From NCBI GenBank assembly GCA_000525675.1, contig CP002190.1, forward strand, positions 1,116,001 through 1,180,000: DNA of 64,000 nt. Direction: 5' to 3'. Shown here one piece after another: positions 19,574 to 54,077 of the stretch. The notes beneath the pieces are model-generated. The model was not told the DNA's origin. It saw only the letters and a list, made by a program, of their open reading frames with translations, and searched no databases. The number at the start of each line of letters is the position of its first letter. Within the stretch, counting starts at the first letter, position 1. The translations under genes and the position numbers were made by a program. Source of the DNA: Bdellovibrio bacteriovorus W (GTDB lineage: Bacteria > Bdellovibrionota > Bdellovibrionia > Bdellovibrionales > Bdellovibrionaceae).

Positions 19574-19958
19574 CCAATACTCCTTGTTTTTTCAATTTCA
19601 AAGAATAGCAGAAGGCTACTTTGAGGTAAAGGAAAGCGTCTAGATTTCTTCAAAATGGCGCAAAGATAAAAATGAAAGCGAGTTGAACAAGAGGTCTAGA
19701 AATAGAAAGAAGAAGTCCGCTTTAAAAGGATTCAAAGCGCTAACTCGGGGGCTTCTAGGATTTATTGCAAGAACCTAGAGATTTTAGCTAATGACGAAGA
19801 CGGCTATGGGTGAAACTCTTTAATAAGGGATCTCCGGTAGGCATGGATGCCTGCGACCACCGTAATCGGTGGTCAAGAAGCCGGCTGAGCCTGGAGGGCG
19901 TATCCCGCTTAAAGAGTTTCATTCATAGCCGTTCTGCTTAGCTAGCAAGATCTGGGAC
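19574..19958. other. 385-bp non-coding gap inside the gsp operon
   Basis: No credible gene lies here. It contains the structured repeat at 19801-19931 and, near 19750-19775, a short TCTAGG/CCTAGA hairpin. The rest shows no recognisable element. Such a long gap is out of keeping with the overlapping genes on either side. Confidence 0.7.
19801..19931 (+). repeat. Structured palindromic repeat, copy 1
   Basis: The outer arms pair as CGGCTATG/CATAGCCG, then TGAAACTCTTTAA/TTAAAGAGTTTCA, then GGGAT/ATCCC (26 bp). The 80-nt core at 19827-19906 contains a GGCAT-GG-ATGCC hairpin, a perfect GACCACCG-TAAT-CGGTGGTC hairpin and the motif CTGAGCCTGGAGGGCGT. The core is about 89% identical to copy 2 at 53978-54057, while the outer arms are unrelated in sequence. 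It lies antisense to gsp transcription, which would produce the complementary fold. Confidence 0.8.
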
Positions 19959-21180
19959 TTATCCTGCGATGTTCGCCATTTCAAACATAGGAACCATCAC
20001 CGCCATGACAATCATACCAATGGCAAGACCCATCATTACGATCACAACTGGACCCATCAGACTTGTAAGACCCTCAAGTTTTTGTTTTTACTTGAAAGTC
20101 GTAGGCGTCAGAGACTTGCGAGAGCATATTCTCGAGTTCGCCAGTTTTTTCACCAATGTTGACCATGTGGATCACGATCGGTGGGAATTGTCCTGATTTT
20201 TTTAAAGGGCCGGCGATAGATTCACCTTCTGAGATATTGCTACGGGCTTCGTCAATGGCTTGCGCTAAAACGTGATTATTAACAACGTTTCTGACGATGT
20301 CCATGGCTGCTAGCATGGGGACGCCACCATTGAGCAAAGTCGATAGTGTGCGAGTAAAGCGCGATACCGCAACCATGCGAACAGTGGGGCCCACAACTGG
20401 AAGTTTAAGAGAGATAGCATCCCACTGAGCTTGCCCCGCAGGAGTGTTCTTCCAATTTTTGAAAAGCAGATACATTAGCAGGGCGCCACCCACTAAGAGA
20501 TACCAGTAATTTACAACAAACTGGCTGGCATCAATGAGCGTCACCGTATACCAAGGAAGCTCTAAATTGGGAGCGGATTCAAAAACAGTGACCATTTTAG
20601 GAATCAGAAATACAAAGAGGAAGCCCAAGAGACCCAACGTCACAACCATCATCACAATCGGGTAGGTCATGGCGCTGCTCACTTTGGCGCGCAAGTCGGC
20701 CTGTGCTTCCGTAAACTCTGCAAGACGCATCAGGATCACGTCTAAGCTTCCTGACATTTCTCCGGCCTCAACCATAGAAATATAAATATTAGAAAAGATA
20801 TTGGGATACTTGGCCAAAGATTTATAAAGCGGCGAACCTTCGTTGACCATGTTCTTACAGTCAGCGATGGCTTCTGAAAGAGTCGGGTTCTCCACCTGTT
20901 CAGAGACCGCCGTGAGAGCGTCGACAAGGGGAATGTTTGCTTTAATTAAAGTCGCCAATTGACGAGTCATCAGAGAAAGTTCTTTAACGCCGACATTCTT
21001 GGTAGAGCGAGGAGCCCCTTTTGCTTTCTTACTATCGCCTTTTTTCTTATCGCGGATATCAACGACAAATATATTGTCTTTTTTCAATTTAGCGCGCGCC
21101 GCTCGCATATTCTCCGAGTCGATGATGCCTTTGACGTTTTTTCCGTCTCTTGTAAGACCTTTGTATTCAAAAATAGGCAT
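19959..21180 (-). CDS. gspF: Type II secretion inner-membrane platform protein GspF, frameshifted
   Basis: GspF is the polytopic platform protein that couples GspE to pseudopilus growth. Two T2SSF domains are visible (about residues 68-190 and 270-390) with helices YPIVMMVVTLGLLGFLFVFLI and YWYLLVGGALLMYLLF. The uninterrupted frame stops at 20074 after DFQVKTKT. Skipping one A in the run at 20079-20083 continues as KLEGLTSLMGPVVIVMMGLA and on to MANIAG, stop at 19959, restoring the conserved third membrane helix and the normal length of about 406 residues. As written, the last 38 residues are lost. Read-level confirmation would decide between error and mutation. Confidence 0.9.
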
Positions 21181-21197
21181 GGCGCGTTCGTTATCTC

Positions 21198-22886
21198 CTA
21201 AATATCTAACTGAGTATTTGAAGTTAGTTCTTCAATAGTCGTGATTCCAGCTAGGACTTTTTGAATGCCATGGTCACGGAATGTCTTCATTCCATTTTCA
21301 ACGGCAACTTTTTTAATTGTGTTACCGTCCTTACGTTGCATCACGAGGGTGCGAATATCGTCGGTGACCATTAAAAGCTCACTGATTGTCGTACGACCCG
21401 AATAACCTTTTTGGTTGCAGTGATTGCAGCCAATAGCTTTACAGATATGTGCATTCTGAGCTTGATCTTCGGTGATGCCTAAAAGTTGGCGTTCAAACGC
21501 CGTTGGCTCATGCGGCGCCTTGCAGTGAGGGCAGAGAACACGCACAAGACGTTGAGCGATCACACCTTGAATAGAGGTTGCAATCAAGAACGGCTCTACA
21601 CCGAAGTCAATCAGACGAGGGAAGGCGCCGGCCGCATCGTTCGTATGGAGCGTGGATAAAACCAAGTGGCCCGTGAGGGAAGCTTGAATTGCAAGCTCGG
21701 CAGTTTCTAAGTCACGAACCTCACCGACCATGATGATGTCAGGGTCTTGACGAAGGAAGGAGCGCAGACCTGCGGCAAACGTTAAGCCAATGCGTGAGTT
21801 CACTTGAACCTGTCCGATGCCGTGGATTCGTTGCTCCACAGGATCTTCAACGGTCAAAATATTTACATCAGGCTCATTCAATTTAGAAAGAGCTCCGTAA
21901 AGAGTCGTGGACTTACCAGAGCCCGTTGGACCGGTTACGAGGAAGATGCCGTAGGAACGACTTAAAAGATCGTCGAGTCTTTCAAGGTTCTCCGTAGAGA
22001 AACCCAGTTGCTCCAACTCAAGAACGATATTGGATCTATCTTGAATACGCATCACCAGACGTTCACCATGAGCGGTTGGAACTGTGGAAAGACGAATATC
22101 AATGTCTTTACCGCCCACTTTCAAGGGGATACGACCATCTTGAGGGAGGCGTTTTTCAGCGATGTTTAAATTTGCCATAACTTTGATTCTCGAAGTGATA
22201 GCATTTTGCAGTTTCTTTGGTGGTTTGAAGATATCAAAAAGAATACCGTCTGTTCTAAAGCGAACGACCATGTCTTTTTCATAGGGTTCAATATGGATAT
22301 CAGATGCTTTTTCTTTGACGGCGCGGAAAAGAAGGCTATTCACCATCTTGATCACGGGCGCATCGTCTTCGCCAGCCTCGAGAAGATCCACAATCGGATC
22401 GTCTAAGTCGTAGTCTTCGTCGTCAATCTCATCCAATCCAGAAAGGTTCGCGGTGCTTTTTTCGTAGACCTTATTGATGGCATCTTGCACGCGCATCGTC
22501 GTCGTAATCAGAGGGCGAACACGCTTTCCGAAAAGCACTTTTAAATCATCCAGCGCTTTAAGGTTTACAGGATTTGAGGTGAGGGCCACAAGCACGTCGG
22601 ACTCTTCCTTGTAAGGAAGGATGTTGTGCTGTTTAGCGTAGTTAATAGGGATGTCAGTGACTAAATCAGCGGAAATATCGCTGACGGGAATGTCTTTGAT
22701 GAAATCAAGACCTAACTCTTTACAGAGATCAGAGACCAGCTCATCCGCATTGGTAAATTCCTTTGCAGAAAGAGCTTCTCCGACAGAAATTGGACGGACC
22801 ACAGATGTGTTCGCAAGAACCGAACGAATTTGGTCCTGCGAAAGGGAAGTGGCCTTAGAAAGTATCGTCTGTATATCTGCTGCCAT
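21198..22886 (-). CDS. gspE: Type II secretion ATPase GspE
   Basis: GspE is the cytoplasmic hexameric ATPase that powers pseudopilus assembly. The N-terminal domain (about 1-150) binds GspL. The core has Walker A GPTGSGKSTTLYGAL (about residue 315), an Asp box, Walker B DPDIIMVGEVRD and a His box. The C-terminal tetracysteine zinc motif is complete: CPHC near 445 and CNHC about 40 residues later. Length 562 is normal. It lies 17 bp upstream of gspF. Confidence 0.96.
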   Translation of the reverse strand: MAADIQTILSKATSLSQDQIRSVLANTSVVRPISVGEALSAKEFTNADELVSDLCKELGLDFIKDIPVSDISADLVTDIPINYAKQHNILPYKEESDVLVALTSNPVNLKALDDLKVLFGKRVRPLITTTMRVQDAINKVYEKSTANLSGLDEIDDEDYDLDDPIVDLLEAGEDDAPVIKMVNSLLFRAVKEKASDIHIEPYEKDMVVRFRTDGILFDIFKPPKKLQNAITSRIKVMANLNIAEKRLPQDGRIPLKVGGKDIDIRLSTVPTAHGERLVMRIQDRSNIVLELEQLGFSTENLERLDDLLSRSYGIFLVTGPTGSGKSTTLYGALSKLNEPDVNILTVEDPVEQRIHGIGQVQVNSRIGLTFAAGLRSFLRQDPDIIMVGEVRDLETAELAIQASLTGHLVLSTLHTNDAAGAFPRLIDFGVEPFLIATSIQGVIAQRLVRVLCPHCKAPHEPTAFERQLLGITEDQAQNAHICKAIGCNHCNQKGYSGRTTISELLMVTDDIRTLVMQRKDGNTIKKVAVENGMKTFRDHGIQKVLAGITTIEELTSNTQLDI

Positions 22887-22923
22887 TTAAGAACAATCTC
22901 CGTAAATTCCTAAAAAATCTCAA

Positions 22924-25251
22924 TTACTCTTCCATAAATGGAATGTCATCGTCTTGCAACTCAGGAGCTGGAGCACCTGAAGGCGCTTGAGCTCTGCGAT
23001 GGATTTGATCCATCTTTTTACCATAAGGATCAACGCCGCCTTGTGCTTTGATAAAATCTATACGTTCGTCAAGCTTTTGAGAAACGATAGCGTTTGAATC
23101 AAATGTGTTGCGAATAATCTTAGGTGTTAAGAAGACAACCATATTGGTTTTATCTTTCACGATAGTGCGTGACTTAAACAACCAACCTAGGATTGGAATA
23201 TCTCCAAGAAGAGGGACTTTCGTTACCGACTCGATATCTTGTTCTCTCATCAAACCACCCAAAATCGCAGTGTCACCATTTTGTACGTTGATCACAGTCT
23301 TGATCGAACGTTTGGCTAACGGCTGAGTAGAGTCTTGGAATGCCTTTGGAGTACTTGCTGTCGATAGCTGAGAAACCTGTTGCTTGATCTCCATACGAAT
23401 TTGATTTGTCGTAGGGCTGATGAATGGTTTCAAAGTTAGTTTAATCGTCGCATCTTCAAATACCGGAGTTGTGATTGTCGTTCCAGAAGTTCCTGTGCTT
23501 GTTGCATTGGAACCAACAACAACTTTATCACCCACTTCGATTTCACCTTCTTGGTTATCTAAAGTCATCAATTGAGGAGTCGAAAGGATATTTGCTTTTT
23601 TTGCTGTCTTTAAGAAGTTGATGAAACCTAAAAGGCTAGGGATCTTCAAGCTCTGCTTAGAGATAGGATCTGTGACTTCGATAACTTTGCCTTCACCAAA
23701 GCCGATAACAGCACCGTTACCGCCAGTAGGGCTAAGAAGGGTGTTGATGTTATCAATTCCGTTGAATCCGACTTTACCATAACCAGTATCGCCGTATTTA
23801 TAGTAACCAATGCCCCATGCAGTACCATCGTTCGCACTCATCTCCATGATGATAGCTTCAACGAAGACTTGGTCGCGAGGAGTGTCGATTTTTGAAAGAA
23901 TATTCAGAACAACTTCATAGTCTTGCTTAGACGCTGTGATGATGAGGCTGTTTGTCGTCTTATCGCCTACGATTTTTACATCGCCACCAAAGATCTCTTG
24001 CGGAGCCTGCATTTGGCCGCCAGCACCGATTGGAGAAAGCAAGCTTCCGCCAGTTTGTGGCTTAGGAGTGGCATCTTTTGCAACTCCTTGAAGAGTCTGT
24101 GCTAATTTTTCTGCGTCCCCATTTTTAACGTGGTAAACGTAAACGCCACCAGATTCTTCAGGGCGAATTTTGAAATCCAATTGAGCAATAAGGCGTTTGA
24201 TGCGACCGATACCAGATTTATTACCAACAACAATGATAGAATTTGTTCTATCATCTGGGATCGCCATAAAGAAGCTGGCTCCTTGTTGAGAAGAAGCGCC
24301 TGCAGTTCTTGAAAAACGTGGAACCCCTGCTGTGAATGTACCTGGAGCACCGCCAGCTTGTGGACGATTTCCTTTGTTCACGATCTTGTCTACGAGATCC
24401 GCAAGGTCTTTTGCTTTTGCGTAGCGGATAGGAATAACTTCGAGTTGCTCTTCAAAGCCCGGAACATCTAGCTGACTGATGATTTTCATCACACGGTCAA
24501 TATTAGAACCGTAGTCAGAGATAATGATGGAGTTTGTTGGTTCATAAATATTCATTTCACCATCTTTAGACGGTAAAATACGCAGATCACGATTCACTTG
24601 AGAAGCAGAGATGTGCTTTAAGTGGATAATACGTGTGATCATTTGGTCAGCATTAGGGTAGTAGGCTCCAGAGAATGTTTCGATATTATCTCTTTGAGCA
24701 TTACGTGCTGACTTTACTTTTAGAAAGCTTCCAGAAGGAACAACTGTGAAACCATTGATAGCTAAAGCCGAAAGGAAAGCCTTGTAAGCTTCAGCAACAG
24801 AGATCTTTGTTGGTGCAACAATTGTGATTTTACCACGAACACTTGGGTCGATGATAAAGTTCTTCCCCGTAAGTTCGCCGATAGCTTTAATAAGGTCGGT
24901 GATTTCGACATTCGGGAAATCGAAAGACTCAATTGTTTCAGGGAAGTTAGTGCTATTGATATCTTCAATAGGCGCATTGGCAAATTTATCTTTTGCAGAC
25001 TTATTTAAAACCTCTGACTTATCACTCTCGGCTGAAGCAGTACCAGCACCACGCGAAGACGCAGGGCCTGAAGGGCGCGAAGGTAAAGAAGACGGTGGTG
25101 GCGGGAAGTAGCTATCTTCAGAATTATCTGAATCACCAAAATCTGGTGGCGGCGGAGGAGGAGGGAAGTCCTCAAACTGAGCCTGAGCAGCCGGGCCCAC
25201 AAGTTGGGCAGTCATCAATGAAGCAAGTCCTATGCTGACGGTTTTTTTCAT
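22924..25251 (-). CDS. gspD: Type II secretion secretin GspD
   Basis: GspD forms the outer-membrane channel. A Sec signal (MKKTVSIGLASLMTAQLVGPAAQA) is followed by a Pro-rich stretch (about 28-65), then N0-N3 domains (VEITDLIKAIGELTGKNFII; AIPDDRTNSIIVVGNK) and the secretin core (ATIKLTLKPFISPTTNQI, NGDTAILGGL, VPLLGDIPILGWLFKSR). Length 775 is a little longer than enterobacterial GspD because of the Pro-rich N-terminus and C-terminal tail. AGGAGAGG before the ATG is a strong ribosome binding site. Confidence 0.96.
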   Translation of the reverse strand: MKKTVSIGLASLMTAQLVGPAAQAQFEDFPPPPPPPDFGDSDNSEDSYFPPPPSSLPSRPSGPASSRGAGTASAESDKSEVLNKSAKDKFANAPIEDINSTNFPETIESFDFPNVEITDLIKAIGELTGKNFIIDPSVRGKITIVAPTKISVAEAYKAFLSALAINGFTVVPSGSFLKVKSARNAQRDNIETFSGAYYPNADQMITRIIHLKHISASQVNRDLRILPSKDGEMNIYEPTNSIIISDYGSNIDRVMKIISQLDVPGFEEQLEVIPIRYAKAKDLADLVDKIVNKGNRPQAGGAPGTFTAGVPRFSRTAGASSQQGASFFMAIPDDRTNSIIVVGNKSGIGRIKRLIAQLDFKIRPEESGGVYVYHVKNGDAEKLAQTLQGVAKDATPKPQTGGSLLSPIGAGGQMQAPQEIFGGDVKIVGDKTTNSLIITASKQDYEVVLNILSKIDTPRDQVFVEAIIMEMSANDGTAWGIGYYKYGDTGYGKVGFNGIDNINTLLSPTGGNGAVIGFGEGKVIEVTDPISKQSLKIPSLLGFINFLKTAKKANILSTPQLMTLDNQEGEIEVGDKVVVGSNATSTGTSGTTITTPVFEDATIKLTLKPFISPTTNQIRMEIKQQVSQLSTASTPKAFQDSTQPLAKRSIKTVINVQNGDTAILGGLMREQDIESVTKVPLLGDIPILGWLFKSRTIVKDKTNMVVFLTPKIIRNTFDSNAIVSQKLDERIDFIKAQGGVDPYGKKMDQIHRRAQAPSGAPAPELQDDDIPFMEE

Positions 25252-25296
25252 TACACCTCTCCTCTTCTTGAGGATAAAAAATCTTTTATTCAGTTA

Positions 25297-26265
25297 TTAC
25301 TGAATATTATAAGTCATAGTTTCAGTTTTACCGTTGCGCTCTACTTGCAAACTCACGCGAGGTGAGTTTTTAAGAGCGTTGTAAAGCTCCATAGCCTTAG
25401 CAGGGCTATCCACTGGAGTGCCATCGACGGATTTGATGACGTCCATACGCTGCAAACCGAGTTGTTCGTAAATACTTCCAGGCTGCATATCTAAAATTCT
25501 AAAGCCATTAATGTTACCAGTGCCGGGTTCGCGATTAGGAACGGCGCGGGCCTGCATAAGAATGCTTGAAAGGTCATTGGTGTATTTTAAGAGGTCCGAT
25601 TTTTTGATCGCAAACGTGTTGTCGCCTGTTTTTTGAACTTCTTGGCCATTGTCCACTGCAGCTGGCCGTGATGAGCCAAACGCTAAGCGACCCCCATCTT
25701 TTTTCATCTCAATAAACTCAAGACGACCCGAGTTGAGATTGCGGAAAGTCACTTTTTGACGTTCAATTTTAATAATATTCGCCATGGACTCAATGTCTTT
25801 ACCAACGCTGTAAGAGATCACTTGGTTTTTGCCGCGAACTTCAATCGCCGCCAAGGATTTATCGGGATTAGAGTGCACCAATGTACCAATTAAAGTGAGT
25901 GGAAGTTGTGATGGCACAGGCGCATCTTCTTGTTGAGTTTGGGTGCCTTTTGATTCATCGACAAGAGCATCGGGCATTTGCCCCGTGAACGAGAACATAT
26001 TTCTAGAAGCAATTCCGCTGTAAGAACTTTTACTAGCTTGAGTGGAGATGTTTCTTTGTTTCGGTTGAGCAGGGGGAGCTGTTTGCGGCAACATGCGATC
26101 GCGGTACGCCAAGATAGAAAGATCAGCAATGCAATAACCTATAAATACAAAGAGAATATAGGAATACCATTTCTCAAATGGTGGGCGCTGATTTTTTCGG
26201 TTGCGTAAAATCACAGTTGTACAATCCTTGTCTTTTAAGCGGCAATTTTTGCCGAGTGACACCAT
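25297..26265 (-). CDS. gspC: Type II secretion protein GspC
   Basis: GspC bridges the inner platform and the secretin. One membrane helix near residues 34-54 (YSYILFVFIGYCIADLSIL), a homology region domain (about 85-160, SRNMFSF..., LIGTLVHSNPDKSLAAIEV) and a C-terminal PDZ domain (FRILDMQPGSIYEQLGLQ, VIKSVDGTPVDS). First gene of the operon. ATG 26265 gives 322 residues; GTG 26214, with AAGGA upstream, is a plausible alternative start that leaves the helix intact. Confidence 0.9.
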   Translation of the reverse strand: MVSLGKNCRLKDKDCTTVILRNRKNQRPPFEKWYSYILFVFIGYCIADLSILAYRDRMLPQTAPPAQPKQRNISTQASKSSYSGIASRNMFSFTGQMPDALVDESKGTQTQQEDAPVPSQLPLTLIGTLVHSNPDKSLAAIEVRGKNQVISYSVGKDIESMANIIKIERQKVTFRNLNSGRLEFIEMKKDGGRLAFGSSRPAAVDNGQEVQKTGDNTFAIKKSDLLKYTNDLSSILMQARAVPNREPGTGNINGFRILDMQPGSIYEQLGLQRMDVIKSVDGTPVDSPAKAMELYNALKNSPRVSLQVERNGKTETMTYNIQ

Positions 26266-26388
26266 CTAGGCTCATGTCCATGTTAGCAAATAGAAGAACT
26301 TGGCTGCACTAAAAAATGGAAGCTAGACCATGGTCGTATGTTAACTTTTTGCTCAACATTTGGCTCCAACTTAGGTCAAGATATAAGT

Positions 26389-26958
26389 ATGAGAATTCTC
26401 TACTTCACGGATGGAGCAGGAATCGATCTTCTAGGTATCAGGGAATCCGTTCTCAGAATACCTGAAGTACTCACCTCACTACGAGCAGGCCAGGAACAGG
26501 TTCGCTATGTGGATTTAATGCAGGTGATGACGATAACAGATGAAGAGTTTCGACTGATCCCATCTGCGCTAAAAAGTCTAATCATCAATCTAGTTCAGCG
26601 TGGTCTGCACCAACGCTGGGTTAACCGTGATCATCAGTCAGATCTGATTCTTCGACGTATCAACCATCGCTCGGTGGAAGAGGTGAAGTGTCAGCTCCTT
26701 CAGTTCGTGCGCGCGCGAGCAGAGTTGTTCTCTGTTCCGGCAGATCAGTTGAGATTGAGTCATTTTCTTTCTCGATTGGAAATAACTATCATTGGACCAG
26801 GATATGATGACGTGGAGTTATGGCTCCGTCGAGAGGCCGAAAAATGCCTGCAAATGAAGGTCTGCGTAAAAGACGTGATTGCTTCGGACCCGCAATTGGA
26901 CTGGTTCTGGCCCCACGTCTCTCAGAACGTTCTCAATCATGATTCTATAGTGATGTAA
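26389..26958 (+). CDS. Hypothetical protein divergent from gspC
   Basis: A 189-residue soluble protein without signal peptide or membrane helix. ATG 26389 (MRILYFTDGAGIDLLGIRES) is preferred over in-frame 26338 because the residues before it are unlike a protein start. The region 85-150 is rich in Arg and Leu with helical periodicity. No family recognised. It shares a 120-bp intergenic region with gspC and is closed by its own terminator. Confidence 0.6.
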   Translation: MRILYFTDGAGIDLLGIRESVLRIPEVLTSLRAGQEQVRYVDLMQVMTITDEEFRLIPSALKSLIINLVQRGLHQRWVNRDHQSDLILRRINHRSVEEVKCQLLQFVRARAELFSVPADQLRLSHFLSRLEITIIGPGYDDVELWLRREAEKCLQMKVCVKDVIASDPQLDWFWPHVSQNVLNHDSIVM

Positions 26959-26980
26959 GCGAAAATAGATCTTAAATAGA

Positions 26981-27019
26981 AAATAAGGGCTTTCCAAACA
27001 CTGGAAAGCCCTTATTTTT
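26981..27019 (+). terminator. Strong rho-independent terminator
   Basis: AATAAGGGCTTTCCA pairs with TGGAAAGCCCTTATT around a short AACAC loop and is followed by T residues. It ends the 26389-26958 gene; the A-rich left flank is short, so it works mainly in the + direction. Confidence 0.85.
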
Positions 27020-27039
27020 TTGTGAAAACGAGTTTTAAA

Positions 27040-27068
27040 TTGCGAAAGAGCAGGCCTATGATTATATC
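27040..27068 (+). promoter_or_regulatory. Sigma-70-like promoter for the sulfatase-family gene
   Basis: TTGCGA (27040-27045), a 17-bp spacer and TATATC (27063-27068) lie about 30 bp before the start codon and just after the previous terminator. Inference from boxes and spacing only. Confidence 0.4.
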
Positions 27069-27098
27069 TCCAAAGTTTATTAAATAGGCGAGAGTGAT

Positions 27099-29126: not shown

Positions 29127-29131
29127 ATCTG

Positions 29132-30625: not shown

Positions 30626-30803
30626 CAATAGATAGAACAGCAAAACCAAGGCCCCCTTAAAACAAAGGAGAGTCACTTTAGGACGCATCGAGTGTCTAAC
30701 TTTAAAACACTCGCCGTAAGATGGCGGGAGCGTGTTTTGTGCTCAATGAGTGCGCTAATTGAGGCTATGTATGAATAAATTTCGCTGAGCGAAGGTGTTT
30801 TGA

Positions 30804-30833: not shown

Positions 30834-30899
30834 CAAACGCCGTTGGCAAAAGGATTGCTCTAGGATTCCTCGATTCTATAAATCTTAATGGAGGATTTT

Positions 30900-35143: not shown

Positions 35144-35321
35144 GGTTTGAAAGCGAGGGATTTGCGGAGCAATCTAAGCAAGTCTCTAGCACTTCAGCGG
35201 CACGCCATCCTGGCTCAATTGCGGCCGCTGCCTTTGGCATCGGTTCGGGCCGTCCAGGCCCCCGCAAAGGCCGCTTTCGGCCAGAGACTTTCTTAGCTTT
35301 CTCCGCAAATTTTGATTTCAA
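35144..35321 (-). repeat. Multibranched palindromic element, divergent copy 3 of the repeat family
   Basis: The outer arms match as imperfect inverted repeats: ATTTGCGGAG/CTCCGCAAAT is perfect, followed by CTAAG and AAGTCTCT pairings. Inside are CAGCGGC/GCCGCTG, GCCTTTG/CAAAGGC and GGGCC/GGCCC hairpins. On the minus strand it carries TTGAGCCAGGATGGCGT (35202-35218), 15 of 17 bases identical to the motif of copy 2. The core is more GC-rich than its surroundings. It lies next to a transposase remnant. Confidence 0.7.
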
Positions 35322-46941: not shown

Positions 46942-47462
46942 TGGCTAAATATACAAAAGGCATTGCCGGAATTTGGGAAGATGAAGCATTGGTGTTGAAG
47001 GCTGCGCGCAAAGTGCGCGAAGCTGGATTTCAAAAGTTCGAAGCTATCTCTGGTTACCCAGTTCATGGGATGGAAGAAGCTTGTGGTATCAAAAGATCTT
47101 GGTTGCCGTATGTAACTTTCGGCATGGGTGTCTTCGGTCTGGTTGCAGGTTTGCTATTGACATGGTGGACCTCTGCAGTGAGCTGGCCAATCAACGTTGG
47201 TGGTAAACCAATGTTTTCTTTGCCTGCGTTCATTCCAGTTATTTTTGAAGTAACCATTCTATTTGCAGCTCTTTCATCTGTTGCGGCTCTATTCTACGCT
47301 TGTGGAATGCCGAAAATGGATCCACCAGTGATTGATCCTGATCTAAGCTCGCACAAGTTTGCGATCTTCATTCCATACAATGATATTGGATATGATGAAT
47401 CAAAACTTGAAGGCATGTTCAAAGATCTTGGCGCAACTGAAGTGAAGAAGACGGAGTACTAA
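46941..47462 (+). CDS. actD: Alternative complex III subunit ActD (DUF3341)
   Basis: A 173-residue membrane subunit with two helices (about 55-77 and 95-120) and a short cytoplasmic N-terminal domain ([30 protein letters not shown]) typical of ActD. Its first base overlaps the actC stop. Confidence 0.9.
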   Translation: MAKYTKGIAGIWEDEALVLKAARKVREAGFQKFEAISGYPVHGMEEACGIKRSWLPYVTFGMGVFGLVAGLLLTWWTSAVSWPINVGGKPMFSLPAFIPVIFEVTILFAALSSVAALFYACGMPKMDPPVIDPDLSSHKFAIFIPYNDIGYDESKLEGMFKDLGATEVKKTEY

Positions 47463-47463
47463 G

Positions 47464-48039
47464 ATGAAGGGTCTTGTGAATTTATCAATGGCTGCAGCAG
47501 CTGCTATTGCTGCGATGACTTTAGTGAGTTGTGGTCCGCGCGGTAACAAACCGAACGTGGAACTTATCCAAGACATGATGGAATCTCCGGCTATTAAAGC
47601 TCAAGAGTTTGAAGCGGGTGCTCCACATAACCGTGGAATGAGAGTTCCTCCTGAGGGAACAACTCCTGTTGGGTTTGAACACTATAAGTACGCAACTGAC
47701 GTTGAAGGTGCTTCGAAAAATCTTAGAAATCCACTTGCTGGAAAAATGGATGAGGCGACTTTACTTGTAGGGCAAAAGTTCTATGAAACAAACTGCACAA
47801 TCTGCCATGGCGCTAAAGGCGAGGGCGGAGTTGCTGCGGGATCTACAGTTTCTGAAAAAATGGCTTTGAAGCCACCTGCAGTTATTTCTGACAAAGTGAA
47901 GGGTTGGACTGATGGTCACCTTTACCATGTTATTACAATGGGCCAAGGGGTGATGGGACCATATGCTTCTCACATTCCACAAGAGTACCGTTGGCAGGTT
48001 GTTAACTATATTCGCTTCTTAGAGAAGCAGTCGAAGTAG
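47464..48039 (+). CDS. actE: Alternative complex III subunit ActE, monohaem cytochrome c
   Basis: A 191-residue lipoprotein (lipobox LVSC near residue 23) with one CxxCH (CTICHG) and a distal Met region (ITMGQGVMGPYASHI) as in class I cytochrome c. It accepts electrons from the complex. It starts one base after the actD stop. Confidence 0.92.
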   Translation: MKGLVNLSMAAAAAIAAMTLVSCGPRGNKPNVELIQDMMESPAIKAQEFEAGAPHNRGMRVPPEGTTPVGFEHYKYATDVEGASKNLRNPLAGKMDEATLLVGQKFYETNCTICHGAKGEGGVAAGSTVSEKMALKPPAVISDKVKGWTDGHLYHVITMGQGVMGPYASHIPQEYRWQVVNYIRFLEKQSK

Positions 48040-48046
48040 GCGAAAA

Positions 48047-49246
48047 ATGGGCGAAAACAATCAAGTTAATTTACACGTTTCTAAATTCGTAACTCCTGCA
48101 AAGCTTAAGACTTTAAGCTTTGCTCTAGTTGCAATCGGTCTTTTGACTTTTGTTGTAGGACTAATGAAGAACCAAGATAGACTTTGGACTTCATACCTAG
48201 TTGCATTCTTCTTCTTCTCAAGCATGGCTTTGAGTGGATTGTTCTGGATTGCTCTTAACAACGTAGCAAAAGCAGGATGGTCAGTTTCTATCCGTCGTTA
48301 CGCGGAAGCAACATCTGCATTTATTCCAGCAATTCTAATTGGTGGTTTGGTGCTTTTAGTTGGTTTCAAACACTTGTTCCCATGGGCAAATCAAGCATTC
48401 CTTGATGAGCACCCGGTGGTAGCTGCAAAAACTGGATATTTGAACACAGGATTCTTTGTAGTTCGTTTATTCATCTTTGCAATCGGTTGTATGTTGTTTA
48501 AACGTGTGATCGTAGGTGGATCTTTGAAGCAAGACCAAACTGGTGATCAAAGCATCACTGCAAGAGCTGTAGCTCCAGCGGTAGGCTTTATCGGTTTCTT
48601 TGCACTTATGTACACATTCTTCAGCTTTGACCTTCTTATGTCATTGCTTCCAACTTGGTACTCAACGATTTTCGGTATCTATACTTTCTCTGGAATGTTC
48701 CAAGCGGGTATGGCTTTCCTTTTGATCGTGATTATCTTGATGAGAAGAGCTGGCTTTGTAAAAGGCTATGTAACTGAAGAACACCAGCACGACGTTGCGA
48801 AATACCTAAAAGGTTTCTCAATTTTCTGGGCGTACATTGCATTCTCTCAGTTCATGTTGATTTGGTACGCAAATATTCCTGAGGAGACTGAGTACTACAT
48901 CATGAGAGCGCAAGGTGGCTGGATGAGCGTTTCTATGCTTCTTCTAGTATTCCGCTTTATCGTTCCTTTCTTGGCTCTAATGCCAAGAGGTATGAAGCGT
49001 AACGATACAAACGTATTGTTGGTGTCTGCGATCGTACTTATCATGCAGTACGTAGATATTTACTGGATGGTTTATCCAAACTTCTTCGAAGGCCAAGTAG
49101 TATTTGGTTTCTGGGAAGTAGGTATCTTCGCTGGTTTTGCGGGTCTGTTCTTGTTAACAGTAACTGCATTCTGGGCTAAGCACAGCCTAGTACCGTTGAA
49201 AGATCCTCGTATGCACGAGGCAATCTCTCACCACGTTACTTACTAG
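48047..49246 (+). CDS. actF: Alternative complex III subunit ActF
   Basis: A 399-residue polytopic protein with about ten helices, similar to ActC but smaller; FWIALNNVAKAGWSVSIRRYAEA and DLLMSLLPTWYSTIFGIY are ActF features. Last gene of the operon, followed 14 bp later by a strong terminator. Cytochrome oxidase genes, often next to act operons, do not follow here. Confidence 0.92.
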   Translation: MGENNQVNLHVSKFVTPAKLKTLSFALVAIGLLTFVVGLMKNQDRLWTSYLVAFFFFSSMALSGLFWIALNNVAKAGWSVSIRRYAEATSAFIPAILIGGLVLLVGFKHLFPWANQAFLDEHPVVAAKTGYLNTGFFVVRLFIFAIGCMLFKRVIVGGSLKQDQTGDQSITARAVAPAVGFIGFFALMYTFFSFDLLMSLLPTWYSTIFGIYTFSGMFQAGMAFLLIVIILMRRAGFVKGYVTEEHQHDVAKYLKGFSIFWAYIAFSQFMLIWYANIPEETEYYIMRAQGGWMSVSMLLLVFRFIVPFLALMPRGMKRNDTNVLLVSAIVLIMQYVDIYWMVYPNFFEGQVVFGFWEVGIFAGFAGLFLLTVTAFWAKHSLVPLKDPRMHEAISHHVTY

Positions 49247-49260
49247 TCTTTTAAGATTAG

Positions 49261-49291
49261 AAAAAGGGAGTCTTCGGACTCCCTTTTTTTT
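49261..49291 (+). terminator. Terminator of the act operon
   Basis: AAAAAGGGAGTC and GACTCCCTTTTT pair around a TTCG tetraloop, followed by further T. The A-rich left flank means it may also serve the convergent lipocalin gene. Confidence 0.9.
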
Positions 49292-49293
49292 GG

Positions 49294-49869
49294 CTAAAAT
49301 AGATCACAAAGAGACGATCTCTCTTGAAGCCCTCGGCTTTGCGGTTGGATGAAAAAGCGGCACGGGTCTAGCTTGTGTTGACGAAGAGTCTGAGCGATAT
49401 GTTTTAAGTCAGGTAAAGAAAGCTCTTCATCCCGCGACAAGATCCAGCCCAAGCGTTTCTCCCTGTTTCCAACAACCATATAATTCTCATTTTTGTCGAA
49501 ATTGAGAATTTGAAGATCTGTTCCAAGAAGATGAATCCAGTCAAAAAAACGAATATAAGTAATGGATATTTGCGGATTCTCTTGCGAGTTAAGCAGTCGA
49601 CCTCGACCTTCAGCGATGAACTTTTCCTCGTTGAACTGAATACAGGTATTGAGGACTTTGAGTTCTTTATCGGGAAGTTCAAAGAGCTCGAGAGCGGAGT
49701 TATTGCGGCATTGCCTTTGGTAGCTTTGAGGGGTGGCCGCGATCTCATACCATTTCCCCAGCATCTGAGAAGTTGCCAAGGCAGGCATGTTAGAGGGGAG
49801 CCCCAAGGAACGACTCCCTGGGGTGGCGAAGAGAATGAAAAGGAGGACAATCCGTTGCCAAGCCTTCAT
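49294..49869 (-). CDS. Lipocalin (Blc-like), exported
   Basis: Lipocalins bind small hydrophobic ligands or phospholipids. GKWYEIAATPQSYQRQC is the first lipocalin signature; YMVVGNREKRLGWILSRDE matches the third structural region. ATG 49869, with AGGA eight bases upstream, gives a Sec signal (MKAWQRIVLLFILFATPGSRS) and about 191 residues. Unlike E. coli Blc no lipobox Cys is seen, so it is probably periplasmic and soluble. Confidence 0.85.
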   Translation of the reverse strand: MKAWQRIVLLFILFATPGSRSLGLPSNMPALATSQMLGKWYEIAATPQSYQRQCRNNSALELFELPDKELKVLNTCIQFNEEKFIAEGRGRLLNSQENPQISITYIRFFDWIHLLGTDLQILNFDKNENYMVVGNREKRLGWILSRDEELSLPDLKHIAQTLRQHKLDPCRFFIQPQSRGLQERSSLCDLF

Positions 49870-49879
49870 TCCGTCATTC

Positions 49880-50206
49880 CTAGTGTGAAGATCTATCTTC
49901 AACAGATTTCTCTTGATCCTCTAGAAACTCTTGTCTTTCCATTTCGCGATGCTTACGTTTTTGCTCTTCGCACTTTTTATCACCCTTCACGCACACGACC
50001 TCTGCAGTTCTATGAGCGCCTTTTTTAGCAAAGCGCTCTGTATTTCTGCCAGCCTCTTTGGTGTCATTTTTGATATCTCTGCCGATACGGGAAGAGTCTT
50101 CCTTGACCTCTTGAAGTTCTTGTTTGGCTTTTTCTGACAGTGTTTGTTCAGCAAAGCTGGATACGGAAACGAGAGAGCAGAGGACTATAAGAGGCAGGCT
50201 TTTCAT
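49880..50206 (-). CDS. Small periplasmic coiled-coil-like protein
   Basis: A 108-residue protein with a clear signal peptide (MKSLPLIVLCSLVSVSSFA) and a highly charged helical mature part (EKAKQELQEVKEDSSRIGRDI, KRKHREMERQEFLEDQEK) with two Cys (CVKGDKKC). AAGGAG before the ATG supports it. No family recognised. It lies just upstream of the lipocalin on the same strand and may be co-expressed. Confidence 0.65.
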   Translation of the reverse strand: MKSLPLIVLCSLVSVSSFAEQTLSEKAKQELQEVKEDSSRIGRDIKNDTKEAGRNTERFAKKGAHRTAEVVCVKGDKKCEEQKRKHREMERQEFLEDQEKSVEDRSSH

Positions 50207-50384
50207 AGAATCTCCTTTTGTGAGTGTTTCAAAATGATATTTTCATAAACTCAAAACTTTATGTAAATCAGTTATTTAGCAGGGGTGTTTAAAGTCAGTT
50301 AGACGGGTGTTTAAATTTTCAACGGCGCCAGCGTATTAAAGGGGAGCTTAGGTTTGGGCCCTCTCTTTGCAATGAACAATCTTG

Positions 50385-50642
50385 ATGAAGCAATTGAGCG
50401 ATTTCGATTTTATATTTCTTGGCCAGGATTTTAATGAAGAGTTGCGCTCTTTGGGGCCGATCCGCTGGGTTTTTATTAACTCGGATCAGGAGTTTCAAGT
50501 GCAGCTACAACATGTAAAAAAAAGAGGTTTTTGTTGTGATTCAGATGCAGACTTTTACATTCAAACATTTAAAGTTCTTAGAAGTTCTTTCGCGCACTTA
50601 TTTAAAGTGTCACTTTATAGTTATGTCTCAAGTAGTCGATAG
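50385..50642 (+). pseudogene. Possible N-terminal part of the PilZ-domain gene in another frame
   Basis: From ATG 50385 the frame encodes 84 protein-like residues (MKQLSDFDFIFLGQDFNEEL, LFKVSLYSYVS) and then stops. The next gene's frame takes over within this overlap and reads on as YPVLNYMPNIYLYTRW. A single extra base between about 50600 and 50645 would join them. No homopolymer marks the site, so the case is weaker than for spoT and gspF. Confidence 0.4.
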
Positions 50643-51057
50643 TGCTTGTTACCCAGTTTTGAATTATATGCCAAATATTTATCTTTATACGCGCTGGTCA
50701 GCGGTCAACTTCAAGAGTTTTGTTCATAGATGTATTGATGGCTTGTGGAAGAATCGCCGCCAAGAAAGGCGCCCAGTGGCCTCCGGCGTGATGATAAAGC
50801 GCAGTGGGTTTTCGCAAAGGTCTCCGATTGGTGAGGGAGTGCAGTTTCTGCGAGAGGGGACAATGGATGACTTTTCGGCAACCGGGGCACGATTGAGTTT
50901 GTCCAGCGGCGGAGTGGAGTTAAAGGATTTTCTGAACTTAATGTACAAAAACCAGCATGGGATCTGGGTTTCTGTGGAAAGTCAGGTGCGCTGGGTTCAA
51001 GCACAGAAAAACGGCGAAATCTCCTTCGGAGTGCAATTTCTTGCGGTGAATGCTTGA
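50536..51057 (+). CDS. PilZ-domain protein
   Basis: PilZ domains bind cyclic di-GMP. The first motif is RRQERR near residue 75 and the second, DFSATGARL, fits D/N-x-S-x-x-G; the rest of the barrel (WVSVESQVRWVQAQKNGEISFGVQFL) follows. The open frame is 173 residues from GTG 50536, with ATG 50623 as an alternative start; neither has a good ribosome binding site, which agrees with the real N-terminus lying upstream in another frame. Bdellovibrio-type genomes are known to encode many PilZ proteins. Confidence 0.7.
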   Translation: MIQMQTFTFKHLKFLEVLSRTYLKCHFIVMSQVVDSACYPVLNYMPNIYLYTRWSAVNFKSFVHRCIDGLWKNRRQERRPVASGVMIKRSGFSQRSPIGEGVQFLREGTMDDFSATGARLSLSSGGVELKDFLNLMYKNQHGIWVSVESQVRWVQAQKNGEISFGVQFLAVNA

Positions 51058-51071
51058 CCCTTCAGAGCAGG

Positions 51072-51094
51072 GGCATTACTAATAAAGTAATGCC
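51072..51094 (+). other. Hairpin in the thrS leader
   Basis: GGCATTACT and AGTAATGCC form a perfect 9-bp stem with loop AATAA, 16 bp after the PilZ gene and about 90 bp before thrS. There is no T run, so it is not a clear terminator; it could be part of the thrS leader. Confidence 0.4.
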
Positions 51095-51184
51095 ATTGCA
51101 TAATTTAAAGTCATTTTTCAAAGTTCAAATAGATCCGAATCAAGATCAGAAAGTACGTCGTACTTCGGCGTTCACCGTATCATA

Positions 51185-53149
51185 ATGTCACAATTTACAA
51201 TTATTCTGCCGGATAACTCTACGAAGGTGTTTGACCATCAACCGACGGCGTTAGAAGTCGCCATGTCAATTGGCCCACGTTTAGCCAAAGAAACCTTGGG
51301 TGTTAAAATTGATGGGTCCAACGAAATTTCAGATTTAAGAACTCCTTTAAAGGATCAAGCGAAAGTCGCTTTGATCACCACCAAGAGCCCAGAGTCTGTG
51401 GAAGTGATTCGTCACTCAACAGCGCATATCATGGCTCAAGCAGTTCAAGAAATTTGGCCAGAAGTAAAAGTGACCATTGGTCCAGTGATCGAAAATGGTT
51501 TCTATTACGATTTCGATTCTCCGTTTGCTTTTACAGAAGAGCATTTTGAAAAGATTGAAAAGAAGATGGCAGAGATCGTCGCTAAAGATCTTCCGATCAA
51601 GCGCGAGAATTGGCCGATTCAAAAAGCGATAGAGACGTTCAAACAAATGAATGAGCGTTTCAAAGTTGAGTTGATCGAGGACTTAGCTTCTAAAGGTGAG
51701 ACGGTTGTAGGTATTTACTTCAACGGTGAAGGTTGGTTTGATCTTTGTCGTGGACCGCACATTCAGAGCACGGGGCAGATCAAAGCTTTTAAACTTTTAT
51801 CGGTGGCGGGTGCTTACTGGCGCGGGGATGAAAAAAACGCTCAACTTCAGCGTGTCTACGCAACAGCCTTTGGTGATAAGAAAGATCTTGAGCTGTATCT
51901 TCATAACTTGGAAGAGGCTAAGAAACGCGATCACCGCAAGCTTGGTAAAGAACTTGGTATGTTCATGTTTCATGAATATGCACCGGCTTCTCCGTTCTTC
52001 ACAGGCAAGGGTGCTACGGTTTACAACCAGCTTGTGAATTACATCCGTGAGCTTTACCTGTCGTACGACTATCAAGAAGTAATCACTCCACAGATTTTTG
52101 ACGTTGAGTTGTTTAAACGTTCTGGTCACTACCAAAACTATAAAGACAGCATGTACTTCACAAAAGTGGATGATCAGATTGATGCTTTAAAACCAATGAA
52201 CTGTCCAAGTCACTGCTTGATGTTCGGAGCAGAGAAACACTCCTACAGAGAACTTCCTCTAAGAATGGCAGATTTTGGGCGTTTACATCGTTATGAGAAG
52301 TCAGGATCTATTCACGGTATCACACGTGTAAGAACTTTCTGCCAAGACGATGCTCATATCTTCTGTACATTGGATCAGTTGAAAGTTGAGATCTCTCGCT
52401 TTGTCGAGATGTTAAACAAGATTTATCAAACTCTTGGAATGCCGAACTACAAGATTCTTTTGGCAACTCGCCCAGAAAATAGAATGGGTGGGGACGATGT
52501 TTGGGATCGCTCTGAAGGGGCCCTTGCTGACGCCCTCACAGAGTTGAATTTGCCTTTTGAATACTCTCCAGGTGAAGGTGCGTTCTACGGGCCAAAGCTA
52601 GAGTTTCACTTTGTCGATGCTCTAGGTCGCTCATGGCAGACGGGTACGATTCAAGTCGACTTCAATATGCCAGAGGCTTTTGATTTAAAATACACAGGTG
52701 AAGATAATAAAGAGCACCGCCCAGTGATGTTACATAGAGCCGTTCTTGGTTCATTGGAGCGTTTCATTGGTGTATATCTTGAGCATACTGCAGGTCACTT
52801 ACCACCATGGTTGAGCCCTATTCAGGTGGCGATTCTGAATGTTACGGATCGTGTGAATGAGTTCTGTGAGGAGCTACAAGGTCAACTTAAAGGCATGGGA
52901 GTTCGTGTAGAATTCGATCGCCGTAATGAGAAATTGAACTACAAGATTCGTGAAGCTCAGATGCAGAAGATCCCATACATGGTTATTGTAGGGGATAAGG
53001 AAGCAGAGACGAAAACTCTTTCTTTGCGCTTAAGAGATGGATCTGAGCACAAAGGTTTAGATGTTGAACAGTTTTTAAAGTTAGTAGAAAACGATATTAA
53101 GACAAGACAGCTACAGTCTTCACTTGCGAAGCCTGCAGCTCAAAATTAG
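51185..53149 (+). CDS. thrS: Threonyl-tRNA synthetase
   Basis: Charges tRNA-Thr and edits mis-charged Ser. The order is TGS domain (residues 1-62, IILPDNSTKVFDHQPTALEV), editing domain (VIRHSTAHIMAQAVQEIWP with HxxxH), class II core (KPMNCPSHCLMF, RYEKSGSIHGITRVR, HRAVLGSLERFIGVYLEH) and an anticodon-binding domain. Length 654 is normal. No obvious ribosome binding site precedes ATG 51185. Eighteen bases separate it from infC. Confidence 0.97.
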   Translation: MSQFTIILPDNSTKVFDHQPTALEVAMSIGPRLAKETLGVKIDGSNEISDLRTPLKDQAKVALITTKSPESVEVIRHSTAHIMAQAVQEIWPEVKVTIGPVIENGFYYDFDSPFAFTEEHFEKIEKKMAEIVAKDLPIKRENWPIQKAIETFKQMNERFKVELIEDLASKGETVVGIYFNGEGWFDLCRGPHIQSTGQIKAFKLLSVAGAYWRGDEKNAQLQRVYATAFGDKKDLELYLHNLEEAKKRDHRKLGKELGMFMFHEYAPASPFFTGKGATVYNQLVNYIRELYLSYDYQEVITPQIFDVELFKRSGHYQNYKDSMYFTKVDDQIDALKPMNCPSHCLMFGAEKHSYRELPLRMADFGRLHRYEKSGSIHGITRVRTFCQDDAHIFCTLDQLKVEISRFVEMLNKIYQTLGMPNYKILLATRPENRMGGDDVWDRSEGALADALTELNLPFEYSPGEGAFYGPKLEFHFVDALGRSWQTGTIQVDFNMPEAFDLKYTGEDNKEHRPVMLHRAVLGSLERFIGVYLEHTAGHLPPWLSPIQVAILNVTDRVNEFCEELQGQLKGMGVRVEFDRRNEKLNYKIREAQMQKIPYMVIVGDKEAETKTLSLRLRDGSEHKGLDVEQFLKLVENDIKTRQLQSSLAKPAAQN

Positions 53150-53154
53150 AACCC

Positions 53155-53169
53155 CGGAGGTTTCCCATT
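53155..53169 (+). promoter_or_regulatory. Strong ribosome binding site and ATT start codon of infC
   Basis: CGGAGG is followed by six bases and ATT 53167, in frame with the first internal ATG at 53293. IF3 genes in many bacteria start at ATT, which lets IF3 repress its own translation by rejecting the non-canonical codon. The spacing and the conserved N-terminal residues after ATT make this start clear. Confidence 0.85.
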
Positions 53170-53832
53170 AGCAAGTTTGAAGGTAATTCTAGAGGTGGTC
53201 GTTTTGACCGTAATAGAAACTCTAAGGACTCTTTAAGAGTTAACCGTGAGATTCGTGCCCCGCAAATTCGCGTTATCGACGACGAAGGCGCAATGTTGGG
53301 CGTGATGACTGTTCCTGAGGCGTTACGTATTGCGGAAGATAAAGGCCTCGATCTTCTTGAGATTGCTCCTACAGCGACTCCACCGACTTGTAAAATTATG
53401 GACTACGGTAAGTACAAATACGAGAAGAAGAAGCAGGCGACTGCGGCTCGTAAAAAGCAAACTGTAGTAACAATTAAAGAAGTTCAAATGCGCCCAAGAA
53501 CAGATCAGCATGACTTCGAAACGAAGATGAATCATGCGCGTCGTTTTATTCTTGAGGGTGATAAGGTGAAAGTATCTTTGCGCTTTATGGGACGTGAAAT
53601 GGCCCATCAAGAGCTAGGTATGGAAGTTCTGAAGCGTTGTATCGCATTCGTCGAAGATATCGCTTTAGTTGAGTCTCAACCAAAATCAGAGGGCAGAAAT
53701 ATGTTCCTGATGTTGGCTCCAGATCCAGCAAAGATCAAAGAATACGAAAAAGCGCATCCTAATAAGTCTAAACAAGACACTAAAAAATTGGATGAGTTAA
53801 CTGACGTAGAAGACGACGAAGACGAGGAGTAA
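53167..53832 (+). CDS. infC: Translation initiation factor IF-3 (ATT start)
   Basis: IF3 keeps 30S subunits free and proofreads initiator tRNA. From ATT the protein is 221 residues: a basic, Gly/Arg/Asn-rich extension (SKFEGNSRGGRFDRNRNSKD), then VNREIRAPQIRVIDDEGAMLGVM (N-domain), the linker (YEKKKQATAARKKQTVVTIKEVQMRPRTDQHDFETK split across both domains) and the C-domain. It ends in an acidic tail (LTDVEDDEDEE). Starting at ATG 53293 would remove essential N-domain residues. Unusually, rpmI and rplT do not follow; a terminator does. Confidence 0.95.
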   Translation: MSKFEGNSRGGRFDRNRNSKDSLRVNREIRAPQIRVIDDEGAMLGVMTVPEALRIAEDKGLDLLEIAPTATPPTCKIMDYGKYKYEKKKQATAARKKQTVVTIKEVQMRPRTDQHDFETKMNHARRFILEGDKVKVSLRFMGREMAHQELGMEVLKRCIAFVEDIALVESQPKSEGRNMFLMLAPDPAKIKEYEKAHPNKSKQDTKKLDELTDVEDDEDEE

Positions 53833-53885
53833 ATCGCTTTTGTCAGGTTTCTGTGAATAAGTTCGTGATTTGAAAAGTTAAATAC

Positions 53886-53922
53886 AAAAAAGCAAGGTCC
53901 GAGTGGTCCTTGCTTTTTTTTT
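53886..53922 (+). terminator. Rho-independent terminator after infC
   Basis: AGCAAGG and CCTTGCT form the stem with a 10-nt loop and are followed by nine T. It isolates thrS-infC from what lies downstream. Confidence 0.85.
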
Positions 53923-53957
53923 AGAAAACAAAAGTCGTTTAGTTGGTGACGAGGACG

Positions 53958-54077
53958 TGGGAGTATCTCTGCAATATGGGATCTTCGGCAGGCATGGATG
54001 CCTGCGACCGCCGTACTCGGCGCTCAAGAAGCCGATTGAGCCTGGACGGCGTATCCCGTATTGCAGGGATATTGCCA
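53958..54077 (+). repeat. Structured palindromic repeat, copy 2
   Basis: Outer arms TATCTCTGCAATATGGGAT (53964-53982) and the complementary run ending near 54071 pair with few mismatches and extend outward with TGG/CCA. The 80-nt core (53978-54057) shares 71 of 80 bases with copy 1; the second hairpin shows an A-T to G-C change at one pair. It carries GGCAT-GG-ATGCC and TTGAGCCTGGACGGCGT. It lies between the infC terminator and the end of the motor operon. Confidence 0.8.

What the first reader, a model, noticed from the sequence alone, without database searches (positions are those of the whole stretch)
19801..54077. Family of structured intergenic repeats with conserved core and variable, self-complementary arms
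Copy 1 (19801-19931) and copy 2 (53958-54077) share an 80-nt core, GGGAT...ATCCC, with 71 of 80 identical bases. Outside the core, the arms of each copy pair with each other over 13 or more bases but are unrelated between copies. One hairpin shows an A-T to G-C pair change. Two explanations are possible: a structured RNA or DNA element whose outer stem is kept by selection, or an element that inserts into the loop of existing hairpins. Neither is a feature I can name. A search for relatives and a covariation test would decide.
Basis: seen in the sequence. Interest (0 to 1): 0.75.

Follow-up and report, generated by a model that had tools for sequence, protein, structure and literature searches.

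The report
Branched DNA hairpins with exchangeable tips
This bacterial lineage carries a dispersed family of long hairpins between its genes, all ending in the same branched tip on locus-specific stems; sequence evidence suggests the hairpin works as folded single-stranded DNA and that copies trade their tips.

Summary
The own genome has 20 matches; 23 of 24 genomes of the genus have 337 in all. The 70-80 nt core folds as P1[P2(P3,P4),P5] with very strong covariation. The outer arms differ from locus to locus and pair with their own partner (median 33 columns, 88% Watson-Crick).

Evidence leans to folded single-stranded DNA rather than RNA: G-U pairs are nearly absent from the core (18 of 2891 cells, against 171 of 2277 in RNase P of the same genus); DNA energy parameters predict the covarying fold better in 94 of 121 cores, RNase P in 0 of 23; no excess of promoter-like hexamers or T-runs was found.

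Tips are exchanged between loci: in 15 of 24 orthologous loci (12 of 21 without insert-bearing ones) the core resembles another copy of its own genome more than its ortholog. Four cores carry a smaller hairpin unit inside a loop.

Best reading: a REP-like dispersed DNA hairpin element. No mobilising protein was found.

The parts
19800..19823 (+). Copy 1, 5' outer arm
   Evidence: pairs with 19909-19932: 22 WC + 2 G-U of 24 columns (L005)
19827..19906 (+). Copy 1 core: P1 19827-19831/19902-19906; P2 19834-19838/19880-19884; P3 hairpin 19839-19852 (loop TGGA); P4 hairpin 19855-19874; P5 hairpin 19889-19899 (loop TGGAG)
   Evidence: R2 70.9 bits, E 3.7e-15; covariation; these helices are in the DNA-parameter MFE fold
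19909..19932 (+). Copy 1, 3' outer arm
35280..35310 (-). Copy 3 (not in the finding), 5' outer arm
   Evidence: 27 WC + 1 G-U of 31 columns (L040)
35197..35274 (-). Copy 3 core
   Evidence: R2 75.7 bits, E 2.5e-16; identical core at genome position 1821525
35160..35190 (-). Copy 3, 3' outer arm
53958..53976 (+). Copy 2, 5' outer arm
   Evidence: 16 WC + 2 G-U of 19 columns (L035)
53978..54057 (+). Copy 2 core
   Evidence: R2 69.5 bits, E 8.4e-15
54059..54077 (+). Copy 2, 3' outer arm

Best explanation
A dispersed, non-coding, intergenic element of about 150 nt that acts as folded single-stranded DNA. One strand forms a long hairpin: a locus-specific helix of roughly 25-45 columns ending in a conserved branched tip P1[P2(P3,P4),P5] with two small GGA or CGA loops. 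SHOWN by sequence: the tip's helices are kept by Watson-Crick co-changes almost without G-U; the arms keep pairing while they change between sister species; near-identical tips sit on unrelated arms; tips are exchanged between loci of one genome; four tips carry a smaller three-hairpin unit in a loop. INFERRED: the hairpin extrudes when the locus is single-stranded (replication, repair); template switching across it helps to keep the arms complementary; tips are homogenised by recombination between copies or by a dedicated ssDNA enzyme; the tip is the recognition site of an unknown protein, with GGA loops as contact or target points. It resembles REP/REPIN elements in its way of life.
For: Covariation: 25 of 25 pairs with changes on both sides, 445 double-change cells against 116 in shuffles. 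G-U scarcity: 18 G-U to 10 A-C in 123 distinct cores (62 A-C cells of one mostly unpaired P4 column set aside) against 171 to 7 in RNase P of 23 genus members (Fisher p 4.5e-6 for the ratio). DNA energies put 92% of the consensus pairs in the minimum-energy fold, RNA energies 79%; DNA better in 94 of 121 by mean pair probability; for RNase P 0 of 23, also when only covarying pairs are used. [quoted passage not shown] Core exchange: 15 of 24 orthologous loci in each genome, 12 of 21 without three insert-bearing loci. Location: 46 convergent, 51 tandem (28 opposite, 23 same strand), 9 divergent of 106 placed elements. TATAAT-like hexamers in 60 nt: 27 upstream, 24 on the control side, of 126; T-runs downstream 16, upstream 33.
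Against: Arm mismatches are strand-specific (238 A-G against 6 C-T; 119 G-U against 28 A-C), so one strand folds, which RNA would also show. Among the 10 most similar ortholog arms double and single changes are about equal (12 and 14), so stepwise compensation is not excluded. No replication-strand bias was seen in four genomes (origin position assumed). No mobilising enzyme: the own genome has no Y1 transposase match, copy number and Y1 counts do not correlate (rho 0.23, p 0.27), and no R2 match lies in the 12 Y1 loci fetched. In 45 elements an open frame of 100 codons or more covers the core; I took these as chance in G+C-rich repeats and did not test them. Nearest-neighbour energies are models, and the first consensus was drawn by hand. 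No clean gain of a whole core was found.
Confidence: 0.55

Rival explanations
1. A multicopy structured RNA family (trans-acting sRNA): each copy is transcribed into a long hairpin RNA with a conserved branched tip.
For: Extreme covariation; strand-specific G-A and G-U mismatches on the core strand; GGA loops recall CsrA or TwoAYGGAY-type loops (recalled).
Against: G-U nearly absent in the core; RNA energies predict P2 and P5 poorly, 60% and 57% of pairs; no excess of TATAAT-like hexamers or T-runs within 60 nt; no Rfam match over gathering score. Of five listed copies (of 12) of G006, which has the recalled size of strain HD100, one overlaps a published attack-phase sRNA, on the opposite strand (compared by eye).
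Confidence: 0.22
2. A cis-acting RNA in 3' UTRs or between genes (terminator, stability element, antisense).
For: 46 of 106 placed copies lie between convergent genes; copy 2 follows the infC gene.
Against: In tandem contexts the orientation is 28 opposite to 23 same; T-runs in 60 nt are rarer downstream (16 of 126) than upstream (33 of 126); copy 2 lies beyond a terminator-like hairpin with a T-run (read by eye).
Confidence: 0.1
3. Functionless long palindromes kept complementary by replication template switching and homogenised by chance recombination; the tip is not recognised by anything.
For: Double changes outnumber single ones in the arms overall; template switching can create and maintain hairpins (PMC8794818, abstract and start of the introduction seen).
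Against: Loop and junction letters (CT after P1, GAGCC..GGCG, GGA loops) are conserved across species although template switching does not constrain loops; 23 of 24 genomes keep the element.
Confidence: 0.13

Closest known systems
REP / BIME / REPIN (GTAG- and CGTC-tagged palindromes)
   Same: Dispersed extragenic palindromes with strand-specific hairpins and some head-to-head pairs; REPIN spacers also show compensatory changes (PMC3116915, passages).
   Different: Core of 70-80 nt, branched, at the tip of a locus-specific stem; REPs are 20-40 bp (PMC3733652, start of abstract, passages). No R2 match beside 12 Y1 genes and no Y1 match in the own genome.
Bacterial MITEs (recalled)
   Same: Short non-coding repeats with hairpin potential.
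   Different: MITE ends are shared between copies; here the ends (arms) differ and the middle is shared.
Integron attC sites (recalled)
   Same: Recognised as folded single strand, variable sequence with conserved fold.
   Different: Here the conserved part is the tip, not the base. No integrase or cassette search was run.
TwoAYGGAY RNA motif (RF01731, recalled) and a plasmid three-hairpin motif near rep genes
   Same: Two hairpins with GGA loops; the plasmid motif has the same P3-P4-P5 order and weak R2 scores of 17-21 bits.
   Different: No RF01731 match; the plasmid motif lacks P2 and long arms, and its members were found through a preselected pattern.
merRNA of Bdellovibrio (PMC3627812, passages)
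   Same: Structured non-coding sequence of, probably, the same genus.
   Different: merRNA is a 445-nt RNA with a c-di-GMP riboswitch; no riboswitch match here.

Membership tests
REP (GTAG/CGTC) | 20-40 bp palindrome, high copy | tested here: not met
   core 70-80 nt plus arms of median 33 columns; 0-33 matches per genome
REP (GTAG/CGTC) | invariant tetranucleotide tag at the foot | tested here: inconclusive
   GNAG at the 5' foot of the core in 86 of 126 (GTAG alone in 6), against 44 in a control window; the 3' foot has it too on the same strand, 71 of 126
REPIN/RAYT | associated tyrosine transposase | tested here: not met
   0 Y1_Tnp matches in the own genome, no correlation with copy number, 0 R2 matches in 12 Y1 loci; only 12 of 79 Y1 matches were fetched as loci and checked
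MITE | terminal inverted repeats shared between copies | tested here: not met
   median arm identity of close paralogs 49-51%, as in other pairs
MITE | target-site duplication | not tested
   no clean pre-insertion site of a whole element was found
Structured RNA (any Rfam family) | covariance-model match | tested here: not met
   none over gathering score; one chance-level overlap of a core, CRISPR-DR29 at E 4.8 on the other strand
Structured RNA | transcription of the folded strand | not testable with these tools
   no RNA-seq data here
TwoAYGGAY RNA | match to the RF01731 model | tested here: not met
   no hit in E-value mode on 16 element loci and one plasmid-type stretch
Integron attC | cassette array with IntI | not tested
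   no integrase search was run

The most novel reading that the evidence does not exclude
A recursive single-stranded-DNA hairpin system: multi-hairpin units whose targets are the GGA loops of other hairpins. Units land in loops, building hairpins within hairpins, and the branched tip is itself such a unit seated on an unrelated stem; tips circulate between loci through an ssDNA pathway with a host or plasmid-type enzyme that reads folded DNA. The similar three-hairpin motif near plasmid rep genes and DnaA-box-like sites would be the same signal in its replication role.
Probability: 0.2. Interest if true: 0.88.

Novelty: new variant of a known kind. Interest (0 to 1): 0.7.

Why it matters
Strong covariation is usually taken as a mark of structured RNA. 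Here two internal tests (G-U scarcity, DNA against RNA folding energies), each with RNase P of the same genus as control, argue that it can mark folded single-stranded DNA, which would make this a natural test case for telling the two apart. Sister species with about 30 copies each let one watch hairpin tips being exchanged, arms being rewritten and a small unit entering loops, and, if the genus is Bdellovibrio, cultured members exist in which function could be tested.

Tried and rejected
Rejected or led nowhere: (1) Known RNA families: no match over gathering score. (2) merRNA/c-di-GMP riboswitch: passages of PMC3627812; no relation seen. (3) RAYT mobilisation: not supported. (4) Arms as guides against other genes: for L034 and L006 no second place in their own genomes covered an arm alone at E 0.001; only these two copies were tested so. 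(5) Replication-strand bias: none seen (10:10, 10:18, 10:16, 9:8), origin position assumed. (6) Insertion of the core into an empty hairpin: L093/L109 and L098/L114 fit deletion better; G021 lacks the whole hairpin at both loci, G011 at the first. In L104/L113 nearly all of the element is missing in G022, and the G012 arms are weak. L091, L095 and L105 lie in stretches too different between the sisters to read. (7) Named genome scan with a pattern: two hits, one inside a pyrD-like reading frame and judged chance, one leading to the plasmid motif; the tool says that the own genome and near ones may be left out there. (8) Phage collection: no match to copy 1, one weak match to the plasmid motif; plasmid search with an L006 core gave one weak partial match. 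(9) Paper searches on hairpin repeats and primosome sites: from their listings I opened PMC3733652, PMC3116915 and PMC4666352 (passages), PMC8794818 (outline) and PMC2267715 and PMC13155455 (word searches without hits); what I saw of them does not describe this element. (10) A tRNA control for folding energies gave no tRNAs; RNase P covarying pairs were used instead. (11) The first count of arm changes used 19 hand-picked ortholog pairs; it was repeated on all 26, and those numbers are reported.
Full report
WHAT IS THERE. The two copies named in the finding are real: their cores agree at 71 of 80 positions and their arms pair over 24 and 19 columns. A third copy lies at 35197-35274 on the minus strand with arms 35160-35190 and 35280-35310; a full scan finds these three in the window at E up to 1. 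Copy 1 lies between type II secretion genes G and F, copy 2 after the gene of initiation factor IF-3. All three fold far better than shuffled sequence.

HOW WIDESPREAD. BLAST finds 4 places in the own 3.0 Mb genome. A covariance model from those four finds the family in 27 of 59 genomes, the own one included. A model rebuilt from 66 rows (58 distinct) finds 20 places in the own genome at E 0.01, 337 matches in 23 of 24 genomes of the genus (sum of the table) and matches in 36 of 143 genomes, 12 of 68 genera, of the class, the genus included (stricter filters there). One genus member, G004, has none.

THE FOLD. P1 of 5 bp; CT; P2 of 5 bp enclosing hairpins P3 (loop mostly TGGA, or CGA) and P4; a GA-containing linker; the small hairpin P5 GCC-NGGAN-GGC; P1'. 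On 84 distinct rows all 25 pairs change on both sides somewhere, 445 cells change on both sides against 116 expected by shuffling, and sliding the partner destroys the signal (the alignment was fitted to the model, and relatedness inflates such counts). Outside P1 many copies have a small purine internal loop (CGAAG/CGAAGC or GCA/GGA types) and then the locus-specific helix. Over 126 elements the arm helix has a median of 33 columns; of 4525 columns 3996 are Watson-Crick, 132 G-U, 384 mismatches and 13 gaps. So the arms are well paired but not perfect; some copies pair without a flaw over 25-50 bp.

WHICH STRAND, WHICH NUCLEIC ACID. Arm mismatches in 126 elements are 238 A-G, 119 G-U, 32 A-A, 28 A-C, 13 G-G, 7 T-T, 6 C-T and 3 C-C on the core strand, outermost 6 columns dropped. 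Such asymmetry means that the core strand folds by itself; a two-sided cruciform would not show it. RNA and ssDNA both remain possible on this point. Two tests lean to DNA. First, core helices of 123 distinct cores hold 2873 Watson-Crick, 18 G-U and 10 A-C cells (62 A-C cells of one mostly unpaired outer P4 column set aside, 42 other mismatches, 70 gaps), while RNase P of 23 genus members holds 2106, 171 and 7. Second, in 121 cores the covariation-supported pairs are in the minimum-energy fold at 92% with DNA and 79% with RNA parameters; DNA is better in 94 of 121 by mean pair probability; for RNase P it is better in 0 of 23, also on covarying pairs only. [quoted passage not shown] seven pairs were dropped as too different. 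With more than 80% equal columns (10 pairs) double and single changes are about equal, 12 and 14. Template switching (PMC8794818, abstract and start of introduction seen) would give double changes, but stepwise compensation is not excluded. Within 60 nt of the helix no excess of TATAAT-like hexamers (27 upstream, 24 control, of 126) or T-runs was found. Of 106 elements with a called gene on each side 46 are convergent, 51 tandem without clear orientation preference (28, 23) and 9 divergent; 14 lacked a gene on one side and 6 of 126 had too little flank. Genes were called by open frames only, and open frames of 100 codons or more that cover the core (45 elements) were left out.

EXCHANGE OF TIPS. 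Within one genome, paralogs with cores at least 93% identical have arms no more alike (medians 49-51%) than other pairs. Between sister genomes G012 (29 elements held) and G022 (27 held) I matched 24 orthologous loci with flanks of about 90% identity (75-99%). Median core identity of orthologs is 90%, of the best paralog in the same genome 94%; 15 of 24 cores are closer to a paralog in each genome. Without the three loci that carry the insert described next it is 12 of 21 in each, 10 and 11 by a margin of at least 2 points, with medians 93 and 94%. Example: L106/L107 have arms 96 and 93% identical but cores 89%. This is concerted evolution confined to the tip.

HAIRPINS IN HAIRPINS. Four loci carry a unit of about 64 nt, made of hairpins with GGA, GTA-type and GGA loops, inside a GGA loop of the core: L152 and L154 in P3, L151 and L190 (same place as L039) in P5. 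In three the unit follows the letters GGA directly; in L154 the left junction differs. For the three G012 loci the G022 ortholog lacks it; in L152/L160 the arms are 100 and 98% identical. L154/L161 is matched by one flank only, and L151/L156 differ elsewhere in the core. In the sequence held then (867 kb with overlaps, counted) the unit was seen only in these places at up to 3 mismatches in its first hairpin; whole genomes were not searched for it.

LOSS AND GAIN. At two loci one sister lacks core plus the inner 5' arm; 3-nt repeats at the junctions (by eye) suggest deletion. G021 lacks the hairpin altogether at both loci, G011 at the first. G022 has an inverted pair where G012 has one copy. 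I found no clean gain of a core in an otherwise unchanged site.

WHAT IT IS NOT. No Rfam match over gathering score; no sign of a tie to Y1 transposases (21 of 24 genus genomes have matches, the own genome none). It fails REP size, the RAYT link and shared MITE ends.

A LEAD. A pattern scan of named genomes led to a three-hairpin GGA-GNA-GGA motif in plasmids of Pseudomonas, Xanthomonas, Thioflavicoccus and an uncultured bacterium. It lies about 500 bp before a replication initiation gene in L138 and L140 and about 260 bp past the 3' end of repA in L141; L139 shows no rep gene in the stretch. TTATCCACA-like sites follow within about 25-55 nt in L139, L140 and L141 (by eye), not in L138 or L122. 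R2 scores the motif at 17-21 bits, but the sequences were preselected, so this is only a lead to an origin or priming role.

PRINT AND NAME. Searches of the open-access library for Bdellovibrio with palindromic/intergenic/repeat, with small RNA/RNA-seq/intergenic and with REP/RAYT/transposase listed no title or abstract start that describes such an element; most subscription papers are not held. That the genus is Bdellovibrio is an inference from the size of G006 (3,782,950 bases, recalled for strain HD100); no call names the own genome.

Noticed in passing
window 19961-21180, minus strand: The T2SS F gene's open frame stops at 20074, while codons that look like its C-terminus continue at 19961-20073 in another frame (by eye); a frameshift or sequencing error is possible.
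   Followed up: no
L138 2501-2561, L139 2501-2565, L140 2501-2547, L141 2501-2571, L122 6975-7024: Three-hairpin GGA-GNA-GGA motif, near plasmid replication genes in three of the five stretches, with TTATCCACA-like sites about 25-55 nt downstream in three.
   Followed up: partly
L152, L154, L151 (G012) and L190 (G000): A unit of about 64 nt with three hairpins sits inside GGA loops of the core; in two G012 copies it contains GTAG beside a hairpin, as REPs do.
   Followed up: partly
G000 885095(-)/885589(+), L048, L049, L050, L051, L052, L027: Seven divergent pairs of elements, cores about 145-540 bp apart.
   Followed up: partly
L036 1193-1317, L038 1249-1372 and 2837-2962, L042 1270-1395, L037 1803-1916: Another dispersed repeat of about 120 bp in the own genome, seen in flanks of several elements.
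   Followed up: no
G022 and G012: 12 and 10 Y1 transposase-like matches per genome, none in the own genome; their own REPs were not sought.
   Followed up: no
L045 (G006:C1:1337800-1340600): An element lies antisense inside a transcript published as APsRNA6 (if G006 is HD100), which also holds a 92-codon open frame for a membrane-like protein, so that 'sRNA' may be an mRNA.
   Followed up: partly
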